Shown here piece after piece: positions 4,852 to 32,696 of a stretch of 38,956 nt of DNA. The stretch spans positions 1 to 38,956 of the forward strand of contig CAMYMU010000067.1 in NCBI GenBank assembly GCA_947259575.1. The letters are read 5' to 3'. The number at the start of each line of letters is the position of its first letter. The stretch's first letter is position 1. The translations under genes and the position numbers were made by a program. The stretch is from an uncultured Ectothiorhodospiraceae bacterium (lineage in GTDB: Bacteria > Pseudomonadota > Gammaproteobacteria > UBA6429 > Thiohalophilaceae). The notes below the pieces were generated by a model. That model was given only the letters and a program-made list of their open reading frames with translations, was not told the origin of the DNA and ran no database searches.

Positions 4852-4937
4852 GTCGAATTGAGGAGCGTTGCACCGGTCAATCCCGTCAGGCTCAAATCGA
4901 CTCCATCTGAACAACGGCGCTCACCGAACCATGGAGT
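4852..4937 (+). promoter_or_regulatory. S-adenosylhomocysteine (SAH) riboswitch controlling ahcY
   Basis: The sequence matches the known SAH riboswitch core: GAGGAGCGTTGC, then CAGGCTC, then AACGGCGCTCACC. P1 is formed by GTCGA (4852-4856) with TCGAC (4897-4901), extended past an A-A mismatch by TTGAG (4858-4862) with CTCAA (4891-4895). The pseudoknot helix pairs GAGCG (4863-4867) with CGCTC (4918-4922), supported by GTTG (4867-4870) opposite CAAC (4912-4915). This class turns on ahcY when toxic SAH builds up. ACTCCAT (4900-4906) is exactly complementary to ATGGAGT (4931-4937), which holds the ahcY ribosome-binding site, so an off state that hides the site can be drawn. Confidence 0.93.
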
Positions 4938-26356: not shown

Positions 26357-26436
26357 TATTTTTTTCGTCCCACTGGGCCGAGGTACTTTTCTTTGCTTGT
26401 TGTATGAGTTTTTTCGCTCTCGCTGAGAGCGAAAAA
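26357..26436 (+). repeat. Solo copy of the left end of the 30971-31565 repeat element
   Basis: Starting at the first base after the tonB stop codon, this 80-base stretch resembles the left end of the larger element at 30971: both carry TCCCACTGGG, CTTTTC, and then TTTTTTCGCTCTCG.GAGAGCGA in the same order and spacing. Here the palindrome extends to a 12-bp stem, TTTTTCGCTCTC with GAGAGCGAAAAA (26410-26421 / 26425-26436). The interior and right end of the element are missing. The T-run precedes and the A-run follows the hairpin, so it is not an intrinsic terminator on either strand. Confidence 0.7.
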
Positions 26437-27549: not shown

Positions 27550-28052
27550 CGACATGCCCTTCTCCCAGTGAACTGATTCCCAACATGGTTGCCGAGCTCA
27601 AGACTTTATTAAAGGAGCGCGACATCAAGAATGCTTGCATGATCGGTATTCATACAGGTGGTGTCTGGCTGGCCGAAAAGCTACATAAAGAGCTGGCCAT
27701 CGACTCTGCATTGGGTACATTAAACATTACCTTTTACCGCGATGACTTCACACGAATTGGCATGCACCCACAGGTCACTCCTTCCAGTCTAGAATTTGAA
27801 GTCGAGGATCAGCACATCATCCTGGTCGATGACGTGTTACACACCGGCCGCACCATTCGCGCCGCACTCAATGAGATTTTTGACTATGGACGCCCGGCCT
27901 CAGTCATCCTGGTGACACTGGTCGACCGCAGTGGGCGAGAATTACCGATCAATGCCGACGTAACTGGTGTACAATTGGCACTCGGCCCTAATGAACAAAT
28001 CAAATTAAACGGGCCTGAGCCACTTAGTTTAGAAGTACAGGAGACTTCGTGA
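27546..28052 (+). CDS. pyrR: PyrR: uracil phosphoribosyltransferase / pyrimidine operon regulator
   Basis: A 168-residue type I phosphoribosyltransferase-fold protein. The PRPP-binding motif [18 protein letters not shown] is intact, as is [14 protein letters not shown] near the C-terminus and [15 protein letters not shown] near the N-terminus. PyrR proteins bind pyr mRNA in Gram-positive bacteria and have uracil phosphoribosyltransferase activity; in Pseudomonas pyrR lies upstream of pyrB and its regulatory role is less clear. I saw no PyrR-type attenuator in this stretch. It overlaps yqgF by 4 bases and the next gene by 4 bases (GTGA), so translation is probably coupled. Confidence 0.93.
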
Positions 28053-30079
28053 AGCAGCAAGATATTCAATTTGATAACACCGGCAAGCTCCGCCACTTCC
28101 TTACTATTGAAGATCTTCCCCGTCAGACCCTGATAGACATTCTCGATACCGCTGAAAACTTTTCTACCGTCGGCACCCAACAGGCCAAAAAAGTCCCGTT
28201 ACTACGTGGCAAGACCATCGTTAATTTATTCTTCGAAGGCAGCACCCGAACCCGCACTACCTTTGAGCTCGCCGCCAAACGCCTGTCTGCTGATGTGCTC
28301 AACATTAATATCAATACCTCCTCAACCAGTAAGGGCGAAAGCTTGCTCGACATGCTGCGCAACCTGGAGGCAATGCATACCGATATGTTTGTTGTGCGGC
28401 ATGGTGAAAGCGGTGCGGCGCATTTTATCGCGGAACACGTCGCCCCACACATCAGTGTGATTAATGCGGGTGATGGTAGCCATGCTCATCCAACCCAGGG
28501 CATGCTGGATATGTTCACGATTCGTCGTCACAAGCAGGAATTTCAAAATTTACGTGTCGCCATTGTTGGTGACATCATGCATTCGCGCGTAGCCCGTTCC
28601 CAGATTCATGCTTTGAATCGACTCGGTGTACCGGAAGTACGTGTTGTCGGTCCACACACGCTAATACCACGCACGGCCAGCTCACTTGGTGTACATGTCT
28701 ACCACAACCTGCGTGAAGGTATTAAGGACGTCGATGTGGTGATTATGCTCCGGCTGCAAAAAGAACGCATGCAGGGTGCGATGTTACCTAGTGAAGCCGA
28801 GTATTTCTCACAGTATGGCTTAACCGAAGAAAAACTTAGCCTGGCTAAACCAGATGCGATTGTGATGCACCCCGGTCCGATTAACCGTGGAGTCGAAATT
28901 GAATCAGAAGTAGCTGATGGTCCGCAATCCGTCATCCTCGAACAAGTTACCAATGGCTTAGCTGGCTTTGTCGATCTGTGTGCGCGTTTGCGTGAACCTG
29001 GCCAGGAACACAAGGGCACGATTCTTTCAGAGACACGTGCCGCAGCGGCGAGTGGCATCACCAGCCTGTGCATGCCACCGGACACTAACCCGGTGATTGA
29101 TACACCTGCCGTTATCGAACTTATTCACCAGCGCAATGAAGAGGCCGGCTTTTGTCGCATCTATACCATGGGCGCATTAACGATGGGGCTTGCCGGCGAA
29201 CATCTCACCGAGATGGCACACTTAAAAGATGCTGGCTGTGTCGGCGTGAGCAACGTGATGAATTGCATTAATAACCCTCAAGTCTTAAGACGTGCAATGG
29301 AATATGCGGCCAGTGTCGACATGACGGTCTTCCTACACGCACAAGACTCGGGTCTTGCCAACAATGGTTGTGCACACGAAGGGGCCGTAAGTACTCGTTT
29401 AGGCTTAGCAGGCATTCCTGAAGCGGCCGAGACACAGGCAGTGGCAAACTTTCTGATGCTGGTAGAACAGACCGGCGCTCGTATTCACTTCTGTCGATTA
29501 ACCACCTCGCGGGCGATACAGATGATCAGCCGCGCAAAGTATGATGGCTTTGATCTCACCGCAGATGTCGCGGCACATCAGTTACATCTTACAGAAATGG
29601 ACATCGGTTACTTTAATAGTCAATGTCATGTACAACCACCACTACGCACACAACGTGATCGGGATGCACTACGTCAGGCCGTGGTCAACTCACAAATTGA
29701 GGCTATTTGTTCCGATCACCAACCACATGATATTGATGCCAAGCTTGCACCCTTCCCAGCTACTGAACCTGGTATCTCTGCACTCGAGACTTTATTGCCG
29801 TTAAGCTTACGATTAGTCAAAGATGGACTTTTAGATATGCCCGGCTTGATCGATCGACTATCAACGACACCGGCAGAAATACTTGGTCTCAATGCCGGCC
29901 ACTTAAGTGTTGATGCCAAGGCCGATATCACCATCTTTGATCCCGATAAGCATTGGGTGCTGAAACCACAGAACATGTTGAGTGAAGGACGTAATACGCC
30001 TTTTACCAACTGGGAACTTCAAGGTTCAGTTTACAAAACAATTTGTAATGGCCAGGTCGTCTATTCTAACGAACACTAA
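28049..30079 (+). CDS. pyrB: Fused aspartate transcarbamoylase / inactive dihydroorotase-like subunit (PyrB-PyrC')
   Basis: A 676-residue reading frame that joins two proteins normally separate. Residues 1 to about 304 are aspartate transcarbamoylase: carbamoyl-phosphate site STRTRTTFE (65-73), [37 protein letters not shown] (274-284), then [13 protein letters not shown]. From about 305 it continues as the PyrC' (PyrX) type of dihydroorotase homologue: [13 protein letters not shown], where active enzymes have an HxH metal motif and this has none; then [28 protein letters not shown] and [10 protein letters not shown] (around 553-560). PyrC' is catalytically dead but structurally needed by PyrB in Pseudomonas. 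The junction (nt about 28958-28966) lacks the final PyrB helix and the first 50 or so residues of PyrC', about 80 residues in total by memory of family lengths. Start is GTG, overlapping pyrR. A deletion, real or in the assembly, is the simplest cause. Confidence 0.88.
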
Positions 30080-30088
30080 TTTAAAACT

Positions 30089-30970
30089 ATGAACCAAACA
30101 GCTACAAAACCACACCGCGATACTATCGTTTGCGAACAGGCAGAAATTCTTTGCCATGATGCCTTTGAAGGGGAGCAATATATTTTACGCATCCAGGCAC
30201 CTGAAATAGCCAGACGCGCTCTAGCAGGTAGCTTTGTACATATTCAATGCGATCCATCGTTGCCCATGCGCAGACCTATTTCGATTATGCGCGTTGATGC
30301 CAAAGCCGGTTGGGTAGAACTATTATATAAAGTCTTCGGCCATGGCACCGCGCTATTAGCCAAACGACAAGTTGGTGAACAACTGGATCTGTTTGGCCCC
30401 ATTGGCGTGCCGTTTGTAATTCACGAGAATAAAACAAGACCATTACTCATAGGTGGTGGTGTAGGCATTCCGCCCATGATCTTTGTCGCCGACGAGCTCA
30501 AGACACAAAAGCAATACACACCGTTTGTGATCATGGGTTCGGAAGTGCCGTTCCCGTTTAAAAGCAAACCATCGACCGTCATTGTCCCAGGCCAACCTGA
30601 TGGGGTCATCGGCTGCATGCCCCTGCTCGAAGATTGGGGCATCGCTTCACGACTAACATCAAAACAAGGCTACCCAGGTTGCTTCGATGGTTACGTTACA
30701 GATTTGGCTAAACACTATCTTGATGCACTGAATGATGAACAACGACAGGAAGTCGAGATTTTCAGCTGCGGCCCTACTGTCATGTTGGAGGCCGTCGCCA
30801 AACTTGCAAAAGAATATGAACTACCTTGCCAGGTATCACTAGAAGAGCACATGGCATGTGCCGTCGGTGGTTGTGCCGGTTGTGTAGTTGAAGTTAAAAC
30901 AGAAAATGGCCCTGCAATGAAGCGCGTGTGCGTTGATGGGCCGGTGTTTGATGCTTATTCAGTATTCTAG
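30089..30970 (+). CDS. PyrK-like iron-sulfur flavoprotein (dihydroorotate dehydrogenase electron-transfer subunit type)
   Basis: A 293-residue ferredoxin-reductase-like protein with the PyrK layout: a flavin-binding barrel with RRPISIMRV near 60, a nucleotide-binding domain with GGGVGIPPMIFVADEL near 125 and FSCGPTVMLEAVAKLA near 225-240, and a C-terminal [2Fe-2S] motif with Cys257, Cys262, Cys265 and Cys281 (CAVGGCAGC then a cysteine 16 residues on). In Gram-positive class 1B dihydroorotate dehydrogenases PyrK passes electrons from PyrD to NAD. It follows pyrB-pyrC' by 9 bases, which supports a pyrimidine role, but no pyrD is in the window and most gammaproteobacteria use a quinone-linked PyrD without PyrK. 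Another reductase partner is therefore possible. No Shine-Dalgarno sequence precedes the ATG. Confidence 0.85.
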   Translation: MNQTATKPHRDTIVCEQAEILCHDAFEGEQYILRIQAPEIARRALAGSFVHIQCDPSLPMRRPISIMRVDAKAGWVELLYKVFGHGTALLAKRQVGEQLDLFGPIGVPFVIHENKTRPLLIGGGVGIPPMIFVADELKTQKQYTPFVIMGSEVPFPFKSKPSTVIVPGQPDGVIGCMPLLEDWGIASRLTSKQGYPGCFDGYVTDLAKHYLDALNDEQRQEVEIFSCGPTVMLEAVAKLAKEYELPCQVSLEEHMACAVGGCAGCVVEVKTENGPAMKRVCVDGPVFDAYSVF

Positions 30971-31565
30971 TTTTATTTCTTTTTCATCCCACTGGGACGA
31001 GTCCCTTTTCATTGTTTCTAAATTTGCGTTTTTTCGCTCTCGCCGAGAGCGACCTACTTTCTTGTATCGACAAGAAAGTAGGCAAAGAAACTCCTCCCCA
31101 GCGCCAGCCAAACGTTCGCGGCTTATTGGCTTACTCAGTGAAACTTTGTGATTCGCCCTCCTTGGCTCATCACAAAGGCTCGGCGTCCTGCCTCACCCCA
31201 TTCGGGTTTCACCTGCGTTTAGCCAAACGCCTCTCACGGCCGCGCAAGGGGATTATCCCCTGAGCAGGCACTGAGAAATAATTCTAGGTCTGTAACTCTA
31301 ACCTTGATGTGAGTAAAAATGCTCCATGCGCTGGCTACGAGAAAAAATTGGCTGCAACGCAAGTAAGGCCCGCAGGGGCGAGCTAGGGAAGGCGAGCCTG
31401 CGTGCTGAGGCAGGAGGCCGAATCGCGCAGCCTTACTGAGTACTGCCAATTTATTCGAGCGATTAGCCTAGCGCGGAGTGTCTTTTTTCTTTCGTCTCTT
31501 TCTTTTTGGACAGGCAAAAAGAAAGGGACTCGCTTCAGTGAAGCGAAATAGAAATAAAAAAAGAA
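30971..31565. mobile_element. MITE-like non-coding element with imperfect terminal inverted repeats
   Basis: This ~595-base stretch fills the gap between two convergent genes, starting at the first base after one stop codon and ending 6 bases from the other. Its ends are inverted repeats of about 39 bases (30971-31010 and 31521-31560), with identical outer TTTTATTTCT and inner CGAGTCCCTTT and a central hairpin that differs by compensatory changes. Inside are a perfect 13-bp hairpin CCTACTTTCTTGT/ACAAGAAAGTAGG (31053-31065 / 31070-31082), a palindrome CGCTCTCG C CGAGAGCG (31035-31051), a 10-bp hairpin (31499-31508 / 31515-31524), CTTTGTGAT/ATCACAAAG, and a nested AATTGGC...GCCAATT arrangement at about 31345-31455. 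No credible coding frame. No transposase or clear target-site duplication was found. Confidence 0.7.
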
Positions 31566-31571
31566 AAAACC

Positions 31572-32696
31572 TTAATCCGTTTCCTGAATAGTAATCCCAT
31601 CTAAGCCTGAAGAAATGGCATCGGCATCACCTTTTGATTCACCGAGTTTGATCATCAAACGTAGTTCATTTGCAGAGTCAGCATGATTGATTGCATCTTC
31701 ATAGGTGATCTTACCGTCACGGTATAATTCGTAAAGGGCCTGGTCAAAAGTCTGCATACCATTTTGGCGTGACTTGGACATGAGTTCTTTCAAGGTATGA
31801 ACTTCACCTTTTTTAATCATGTCTGATGCGAGTGGGGTGTTAATCAGAATTTCAGCGCAAAGGACACGACTCTGACCATCAGGTGCAGGTATTAATTGCT
31901 GTGCAACAATCGCCTTCAAGTTTAGCGACAAGTCCATCAACAACTGGTTACGACGATCATCAGGGAAGAAGTTAATAATCCGGTCCATTGCCTGGTTAGC
32001 ATTATTCGCGTGCAAGGTCGCCAGGCACAGGTGACCGGTTTCCGCAAAGGCAATCGCATGATCCATGGTATCGCGAGATCGAATCTCACCAATCAGGATC
32101 ACATCTGGCGCCTGTCGCAAAGTATTCTTCAAGGCAATTTCAAAGGTTTCAGTATCCAGACCCACTTCACGTTGAGTAACGATACAACCTTCATGTTGGT
32201 GGATATATTCAATTGGGTCTTCGATAGAAATAATATGACCCGTACTGTTTTTATTTCGATAACCAATCATCGAGGCAAGCGAAGTCGATTTACCTGAACC
32301 CGTCGCGCCTACAAATAACACCAGACCACGTTTGGTCATGGCCAGGTCGCGCAGGATCGGTGGCAGTGATAATTCTTCTATCGTTGGAATCTTGGTTTCA
32401 ATTTTACGCAGCACCATGCCGGCATGGTTTCGTTGTTGAAAGGCACTGACACGGAAACGACCAATGCCGGATGCTGAAATCGCGAAATTACACTCACGCG
32501 AACTATCAAATTCCTGGCGTTGCTCGGGCGACATGATCGAGTAAACGATTTCACGTGCCTGTGAAGGCGTAAGCGTCGCCTGGGTAACAGGATTGACCTT
32601 ACCGTTCACTTTTAAGCTAGGCGCAACACCGGCTGTAATAAATAAATCTGACGCCTTCTTGTGCACCATTAATTTAAGCAGTGAATTAAAGTCCAT
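31572..32696 (-). CDS. pilU: Type IV pilus retraction ATPase PilU
   Basis: Secretion-type AAA ATPase of 374 residues that assists PilT in pulling back type IV pili. Motifs: LLKLMVHKKASDLFITAGVAPSLKVNG at the N-terminus, Walker A GATGSGKST (130-138), Asp box HIISIEDPIEYIHQHEGCIVTQREVGLDT, Walker B VILIGEIRSRDTM, and the His box TGHLCLATLHANNANQAMDR. The GDADAISSGLDGITIQETD tail extends beyond PilT length, which is typical of PilU. It lies 36 bases after pilT on the same strand, so the two are cotranscribed. Confidence 0.95.
   Translation of the reverse strand: MDFNSLLKLMVHKKASDLFITAGVAPSLKVNGKVNPVTQATLTPSQAREIVYSIMSPEQRQEFDSSRECNFAISASGIGRFRVSAFQQRNHAGMVLRKIETKIPTIEELSLPPILRDLAMTKRGLVLFVGATGSGKSTSLASMIGYRNKNSTGHIISIEDPIEYIHQHEGCIVTQREVGLDTETFEIALKNTLRQAPDVILIGEIRSRDTMDHAIAFAETGHLCLATLHANNANQAMDRIINFFPDDRRNQLLMDLSLNLKAIVAQQLIPAPDGQSRVLCAEILINTPLASDMIKKGEVHTLKELMSKSRQNGMQTFDQALYELYRDGKITYEDAINHADSANELRLMIKLGESKGDADAISSGLDGITIQETD

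What the first reader, a model, noticed from the sequence alone, without database searches (positions are those of the whole stretch)
30971..31565. Non-coding element with terminal inverted repeats whose end hairpins covary
Seen: the two ends align in inverted orientation over about 39 bases. The central hairpin is kept in shape but not in sequence: CATCCC ACT GGGACG at the left end against CGCTTC ACT GAAGCG at the right, with three compensatory base-pair changes. The interior is packed with further inverted repeats. Inference: the ends are recognised as folded structures, as in REP-like or IS200/IS605-related elements, or the element works as RNA. It sits exactly between two convergent stop codons.
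Basis: partly seen in the sequence, partly recalled or inferred. Interest (0 to 1): 0.65.

Follow-up and report, generated by a model that had tools for sequence, protein, structure and literature searches.

The report
Foldback mobile repeat with double-hairpin ends
A stretch of non-coding DNA between two genes is one of about two dozen scattered copies of a foldback repeat whose paired end-hairpins keep their shape while changing their letters; relatives occur in other Gamma- and Betaproteobacteria, a few seem to carry genes in their middle, and what moves them is not known.

Summary
The element fills the space between two convergent stop codons. It is multi-copy: 49 complete ends in this genome, 46 of them in 23 inward-facing pairs 492-607 nt apart. 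Each end is two adjoining hairpins, hp1 and hp2, which mostly keep pairing while letters change. The whole strand folds back (DNA z -8.6). Relatives lack the insert at five sites. Of 21 classifiable copies, 14 lie between convergent genes, against 15% background. In another genome six copies have ends 99% and interiors 72% identical. Similar ends occur in 75 of 398 phylum genomes, some weak. In two genomes a gene lies between the halves, twice a candidate defence gene. Mover: no Y1/RAYT gene found here, but RAYT genes occur in 34 of 38 genomes searched; among 30 best RAYT loci one lies between such ends and has its own flanking repeats. So RAYT is unlikely but not excluded. Best reading: a non-autonomous foldback element with hairpin-recognised ends.

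The parts
30971..31026 (+). outer, truncated left end: AT-rich tail, hp1 (30985-30999, one A.C mismatch), then a decayed half of hp2
   Evidence: similar truncated ends outside one end of other copies
31027..31091 (+). complete left end: hp1 CGCTCTC-GCC-GAGAGCG and hp2 CCTACTTTCTTGT-ATCG-ACAAGAAAGTAGG, then CAAAGAAA
   Evidence: covariance model R1, E 6.6e-14 in the whole-genome search, 8.7e-15; this end was one of the 60 training sequences
31092..31484 (.). interior: two half-modules that are imperfect inverted repeats of each other and fold into one rod
   Evidence: antiparallel BLAST matches to other copies
31485..31555 (-). complete right end: hp2 (31494-31508 with 31515-31529) and hp1 CGCTTC-AGT-GAAGCG (31531-31545)
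   Evidence: R1, E 6.7e-12; also a training sequence
31556..31571 (.). AT-rich tail beyond the right hp1, up to the pilU stop codon
   Evidence: weakly alike outside hp1 in other copies
26361..26432 (+). lone truncated left end of the same family elsewhere in the window

Best explanation
A non-autonomous, foldback-type mobile element (MITE-like). Each end carries two adjoining hairpins, hp1 and hp2, that a trans-acting recombinase or transposase recognises, probably in folded or cruciform form. The enzyme is not identified; no Y1/RAYT gene was found in this genome. Copies accumulate mainly behind stop codons, especially between convergent genes, where they do least harm. Halves and end modules are exchanged between copies and pile up on one side; the centre is the most variable part and in a few foreign copies holds a gene. 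SHOWN: dispersed copies, inward-facing paired ends, pairing kept through changes on both sides, absence at the same site in relatives, convergent bias in this genome, ends changing more slowly than interiors. INFERRED: transposition itself, a trans-acting enzyme, recognition as a folded structure, cargo status of the central genes, and selection as the cause of the location bias.
For: 49 complete ends, 23 pairs, span 492-607 nt (150 of 1353 candidates were scored, so possibly a lower bound). hp2: of 29 loci chosen by the 3' arm pattern alone, 28 have the 5' arm; the two outermost variable pairs are Watson-Crick in 26 and 28 of 28, in three and two pair types. hp1: 96 of 108 cells paired against a shuffle mean of 81.5 and maximum of 91. 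Absence: the L012, L010, L007 and L002 sites in relatives (no R1 hit there), and pilU/pyr in 24 of 25 loci with a pyr match. Convergent 14 of 21, binomial P about 1e-7, 0 divergent. G540: ends 99%, interiors 72% identical. Own genome: singletons in 4 of 840 cells of hp2 against 28 of 1551 in the arm, P 0.008.
Against: No autonomous copy with a matched enzyme was found, and no target-site duplication could be read. In one search the third, inner variable pair is Watson-Crick in only 19 of 28 (8 C.A). Two convergent junctions are occupied in distant genomes as well (pilU/pyr here and in a Chromatiales MAG; the L003 site here and in G019), which random transposition predicts only rarely. Across the class the convergent excess is weaker (17 of 43, with 6 divergent). 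Hairpin arms can be corrected against each other by template switching, so covariation alone does not prove selection for shape. The G540 copies were found with the end model, which favours copies with good ends.
Confidence: 0.55

Rival explanations
1. It is a REP/REPIN or TIR repeat moved by an IS200/IS605-like Y1 transposase (RAYT or TIRYT), as the first reader suggested and as Di Nocera et al. (PMC3733652) describe for self-complementary long TIRs.
For: Hairpin ends, 3'-of-gene bias and paired arrangement resemble REPs and TIR repeats (PMC3733652, passages read). RAYT family NF047646 is found in 34 of 38 genomes searched, 18 over its cut-off. In G665 a RAYT lies between two such ends 1445 nt apart; in G352 and G657 a RAYT lies next to an element or half-element.
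Against: None found in this genome, nor in G540, and none by NF047646 in G680 and G555. Among the 30 RAYT loci fetched only G665 has ends; 20 stretches holding 23 of the 25 PF01797 matches have none. The three RAYTs near ends have inverted repeats of their own just outside the gene: 53, 54 and 32 nt, 96-100% identical; four of five other Y1 loci also have other inverted repeats.
Confidence: 0.17
2. A host-used structure: the ends are binding sites or 3'-end RNA structures at convergent junctions, spread long ago and kept by selection.
For: Ends evolve more slowly than interiors; strong convergent bias; two junctions occupied more than once; very strong RNA fold.
Against: Absent at the same sites in relatives. 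Only 8 of 37 genomes of the family, this one included, have a DNA match to the copy (up to 10 candidates scored per genome). No terminator signal above shuffles.
Confidence: 0.2
3. Relic of an ordinary long-inverted-repeat transposon whose transposase belongs to a known DDE or other family and was lost from the genomes looked at.
For: MITE-like size and no Pfam match in six frames; long inverted-repeat arms; another transposase family exists here (IS110, 2 matches; no link tested).
Against: All complete pairs in this genome are 492-607 nt. In other genomes, 19 stretches around ends without a close partner gave a RAYT, two candidate defence genes and ordinary genes, but no DDE transposase among the ORFs given to Pfam; not every ORF was tested.
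Confidence: 0.2

Closest known systems
TIR repeats and TIRtrons (Di Nocera et al. 2013, PMC3733652)
   Same: long, partly self-complementary inverted repeats in families, often as close pairs, in Proteobacteria (passages read)
   Different: those flank Y1 genes; ours flank one of 30 RAYT loci examined, and that RAYT has its own inverted repeats
REP / REPIN / BIME
   Same: hairpin repeats, mostly 3' of genes and between convergent genes
   Different: 20-40 nt with a GTAG or CGTC tag (PMC3733652); ours has 65-71 nt double-hairpin ends around a foldback of about 300-800 nt, and no Y1 gene was found here
Pseudomonas fluorescens intergenic repeats R0, R2, R6, R200 (PMC2718517)
   Same: inverted-repeat-flanked intergenic repeats with tail-repeat-tail bias (passages read)
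   Different: 50-352 nt; R0 and R2 share IRs with IS elements. Their sequences are in a supplement not read, so identity with R200 or R26 is untested
Foldback / Galileo elements of Drosophila (PMC3573991, search listing with start of abstract only)
   Same: long, internally repetitive, variable inverted repeats that fold back
   Different: eukaryotic, P-element-type transposase; analogy only
IS200/IS605
   Same: hairpins near the ends recognised as folded single strands (family knowledge; start of abstract of PMC6006769)
   Different: ends not inverted copies of each other (recalled), Y1 transposase; no Y1 gene found here

Membership tests
IS200/IS605 or RAYT/TIRYT-mobilised repeat | Y1 (HUH) transposase in the genome | tested here: not met
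   0 matches in this genome (95.85% complete) to PF01797, NF047646 and the G665 RAYT protein; G540 likewise. But 34 of 38 genomes do have a match
IS200/IS605 or RAYT/TIRYT-mobilised repeat | Y1 genes flanked by these ends | tested here: inconclusive
   0 of 20 stretches with PF01797 matches (several cut by contig ends); 1 of 30 RAYT loci, G665, where the RAYT has its own 53-nt inverted repeats
REP | GTAG or CGTC tag plus one 20-40 nt palindrome | tested here: not met
   ends are hp1+hp2 of 65-71 nt; CGTC occurs only inside some hp1 stems
MITE (generic) | short, non-coding, terminal inverted repeats, multiple copies | tested here: met
MITE (generic) | target-site duplication | tested here: inconclusive
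   none read in own copies or six G540 copies; outer tails are degenerate, so borders are uncertain
MITE (generic) | related autonomous transposon | tested here: inconclusive
   no pair in this genome is long enough; elsewhere the only transposase seen between ends is the G665 RAYT with its own repeats
Rfam structured RNA | match to a curated family | tested here: not met
   no match at the gathering score (their hits lie outside the elements); one search lists 10 sub-threshold matches with E 0.89 to 8.4

The most novel reading that the evidence does not exclude
A family of bacterial foldback elements in Gamma- and Betaproteobacteria, for which I found no name in what I searched. It is defined by double-hairpin ends that stay nearly invariant within a genome while interiors diverge and exchange halves. 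It is moved by machinery that is not the Y1/HUH kind, repeatedly colonises the same convergent gene junctions, and can carry genes, candidate phage-defence genes among them, in its centre; short copies such as the one in the window would be its empty form.
Probability: 0.33. Interest if true: 0.78.

Novelty: new variant of a known kind. Interest (0 to 1): 0.6.

Why it matters
If right, a share of the intergenic palindromic DNA in many proteobacterial genomes belongs to one definable element family with a testable end structure and an unknown mover. The contrast between nearly invariant ends and divergent interiors gives a way in: find the protein that binds hp1+hp2. Copies with a candidate defence gene in the middle would make it a small gene vehicle. 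It also warns against assigning every hairpin-ended repeat to REP/RAYT, and against using PF01797 alone to call RAYT genes absent.

Tried and rejected
RAYT/TIRYT parentage: made unlikely, not excluded. For this I lowered the best explanation from 0.60 to 0.55 and raised the RAYT rival from 0.10 to 0.17. This copy in plasmids or phages: no blastn match. Parts of elements from G615 and G682 do match Paraburkholderia, Caballeronia, Variovorax and Comamonas replicons. Of 108 viral-contig stretches with the motif 80 were returned; 6 of these hold R1 matches. Known RNA: none at threshold. Canonical terminator: not above shuffles. The lone end at G000:C19 is at a contig end. Long ORFs beside lone ends in GC-rich genomes: several look like antisense or low-complexity frames without Pfam match. 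IS110: present, no link tested. Literature: nine searches. Motif strings gave two unrelated papers. PMC2718517, PMC3733652 and PMC1590033 were read as passages only; supplements were not read.

Caveats. A1 and A2 hold ends chosen for a stem of at least 10 pairs, so the 96.4% is inflated; avoids that choice. Gene calls are home-made, 4 of 25 copies were not classifiable. The 20 background stretches were chosen away from known copies. In one search, 12 of 44 rows in another stem register were left out, and two of the 18 kept are one base out of register. In one search, L017 (6 differences) and L020 (1) were left out for a non-A interior. Of the 25 pyr matches, two have 35% and 29% identity and may not be orthologues, and a few have 1.6-2.0 kb with other sequence between the genes.

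Full report
What is there. The 601 nt between the stop codon of a dihydroorotate dehydrogenase electron-transfer subunit-like gene (stop 30968-30970, +) and that of a pilU-like gene (stop 31572-31574, -) are wholly occupied by the element (families; the former below NCBIfam's cut-offs but over Pfam's for DHODB_Fe-S_bind, the latter over the cut-off of the PilT/PilU family). The whole strand folds back on itself with separate end hairpins, z -8.6 as DNA and -11.6 as RNA against 20 shuffles each.

The end module. Lining up copies shows that an end consists of an AT-rich tail, then TTTCG-hp1-CGA, then hp2 (13-15 bp in this genome, ACTTTCTT-type arm), then usually CAAAGAAA, reading inwards. hp1 has 24 distinct forms in 44 ends, with mostly three-base loops (ACT, GCT, GCC). 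In the 18 distinct ones read as 6+3+6, 96 of 108 cells pair, against a shuffle mean of 81.5 and a maximum of 91 in 2000 shuffles. On 60 ends chosen for a stem, hp2 has 132 cells changed on both sides, and pairing falls from 96% to 48-58% when slid. The check free of that choice uses 29 loci found by the 3' arm alone: 28 have the 5' arm within 45 nt; the next pair outwards is Watson-Crick in 19 of 28, the two after it in 26 and 28 of 28. The two ends of one element usually carry different hp2 letters, each complementary to itself, so what is kept is the hairpin of each end.

Correction of the finding. The complete left end is at 31027-31091, the right one at 31485-31555. Extra truncated ends outside one end (CCTAC or CTTAC type) occur in 10 of 21 copies by script (L007, L010, L011, L013, L014, L015, L017, L022, L023, L026) and in the window copy by eye; other scattered hits of that scan may be chance, its control being 0.19 per window.

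Copies in this genome. BLAST gives 63 matches. A covariance model of the end (R1) finds 49 complete ends, of which 46 form 23 inward-facing pairs spanning 492-607 nt; three are lone, one at a contig end. By eye the halves are modular, A- and B-type halves combining as AA', AB and BA'. In five AA' copies the consensus pairs the two halves into one rod; in ten AB copies each half folds on itself.

Location and absence in relatives. With a simple codon-based gene caller, 14 of 21 classifiable copies (of 25) lie between convergent genes, 7 in tandem, 0 divergent. Background is 46 convergent of 310 neighbouring pairs in the window and 20 other stretches; binomial P about 1e-7, or 6e-7 for gaps of at least 100 nt. 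A rough count over class loci is weaker: 17 convergent, 20 tandem, 6 divergent. Relatives lack the insert at four of the eight sites queried: L012 in G002 and G019, L010 in G001 and G002, L007 in G002 and G019, L002 in G019 (no R1 hit there). For L016, L019 and L022 no joined junction was recovered. At the L003 site G019 carries an element of the same kind (R1 E 5.6e-13 and 5.9e-11), while G003 has about 1.4 kb of other sequence. At pilU/pyr, 25 of 80 pilU loci have a pyr match downstream, and only one of the 25, a Chromatiales MAG, holds an element. So the junctions are empty in most of these relatives, yet two of them were hit more than once.

Ends against interiors. In G540, a single-contig genome rated 100% complete, six dispersed copies of 288-312 nt have ends (72 nt each) 99.1% and 99.5% identical, interiors 72%, flanks about 34%. 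In this genome the 40-nt hp2 block has 4 singleton changes in 840 cells, against 28 in 1551 in the adjoining arm (Fisher P 0.008), and 17 of the 21 copies compared carry it unchanged. Either the ends are under continuing constraint, or copies derive from active lineages that kept their ends.

Spread. The 3' arm motif occurs in 20 of 274 class genomes, this one included, with none in the reversed control. R1 matches 75 of 398 phylum genomes, this one included; 24 of them lie outside the class with E 2e-6 to 9.5e-4 and may not be real, and some class matches are also weak. Parts of elements from G615 and G682 match 16 Paraburkholderia and Caballeronia records (up to 37 places in one) and one record each of Variovorax and Comamonas. 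R1 finds inward-facing pairs in P. caribensis MBA4 (598 nt apart) and V. paradoxus VAI-C (710 nt, between convergent annotated genes).

Genes in the middle. In G657 the plain copy is 572 nt. A second copy carries 1.1 kb with a 163-aa ORF (no Pfam or NCBIfam match) between the same two halves. A third has, right after 100 nt of left half, a 348-aa RelA/SpoT-domain gene that matches the candidate defence family PDC-S33 (E 1.8e-104), then 163 nt of right half without its end. In G678 a KAP-NTPase gene (PDC-S20, E 1.2e-94) lies between a left half and a right half that match each other better (82%) than the nearer pair does (74%), but an inner right half stands before the gene. These are few cases, found among 19 stretches around ends without a close partner plus L234; most of the other stretches show ordinary or spurious frames. 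That the genes are cargo is inference.

Mover. This genome has no match to PF01797, to the RAYT family NF047646 or to a RAYT protein; G540 has none either, nor by NF047646 have G680 and G555. But NF047646 matches 34 of 38 genomes, 18 over its cut-off, and PF01797 alone misses some (G665). Of the 30 RAYT loci fetched, one per genome, only that of G665 lies between R1 ends. There the RAYT has its own 53-nt inverted repeats (98%) and sits where the middle of an element would be, with element arms on both sides; in G352 a 91% identical RAYT with such repeats stands beside an intact element, and in G657 a RAYT with 32-nt repeats abuts a half-element. I read these as REP-type units nested in or beside our element, not as its motor. 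No other transposase was seen between ends. I therefore file the element as a MITE-like foldback repeat with an unknown mover, and not under REP or IS200/IS605.

Noticed in passing
L006, L007, L014, L017, L022, L023, L026 (own genome): A second, roughly 60-120 nt palindromic module (GTACAGGATGTAC ... GGCCATGGACGGCC ... GCACATCCCTGTGC) is inserted into ends or interiors of the element.
   Followed up: no
L002, L003, L008, L009, L010, L012, L016, L019, L020 near the element: ATTCCC...GGGAAT hairpins, like the CGTC-tagged REPs / dRS3 of PMC3733652, lie just outside many copies.
   Followed up: partly
window 28049-30079: One open frame joins aspartate carbamoyltransferase (residues 15-305) to a dihydroorotase lacking its first ~53 positions: a fusion, or two genes joined by a sequence error.
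   Followed up: partly
window 4854-4929: SAH riboswitch above Rfam's gathering score.
   Followed up: no
L430 2019-2561 (G665): A RAYT (NF047646, 94 bits, cut-off 80) that PF01797 does not find, in a unit with its own inverted repeats inside an element.
   Followed up: yes
L444 438-2159 (G678): A protein kinase + PP2C gene (matches to PD-T4-6-type defence kinases, possibly unspecific) near a lone end; no second half found within 12 kb.
   Followed up: partly
L012 1480-1520: The element seems to supply the stop codon of the upstream gene (TATGAGTTTTTTCG), whose orthologue in G002 ends differently.
   Followed up: no
L235 1899-1973: Burkholderia sRNA ncS54 (Rfam RF02871) lies about 200 nt beyond an element end.
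   Followed up: no
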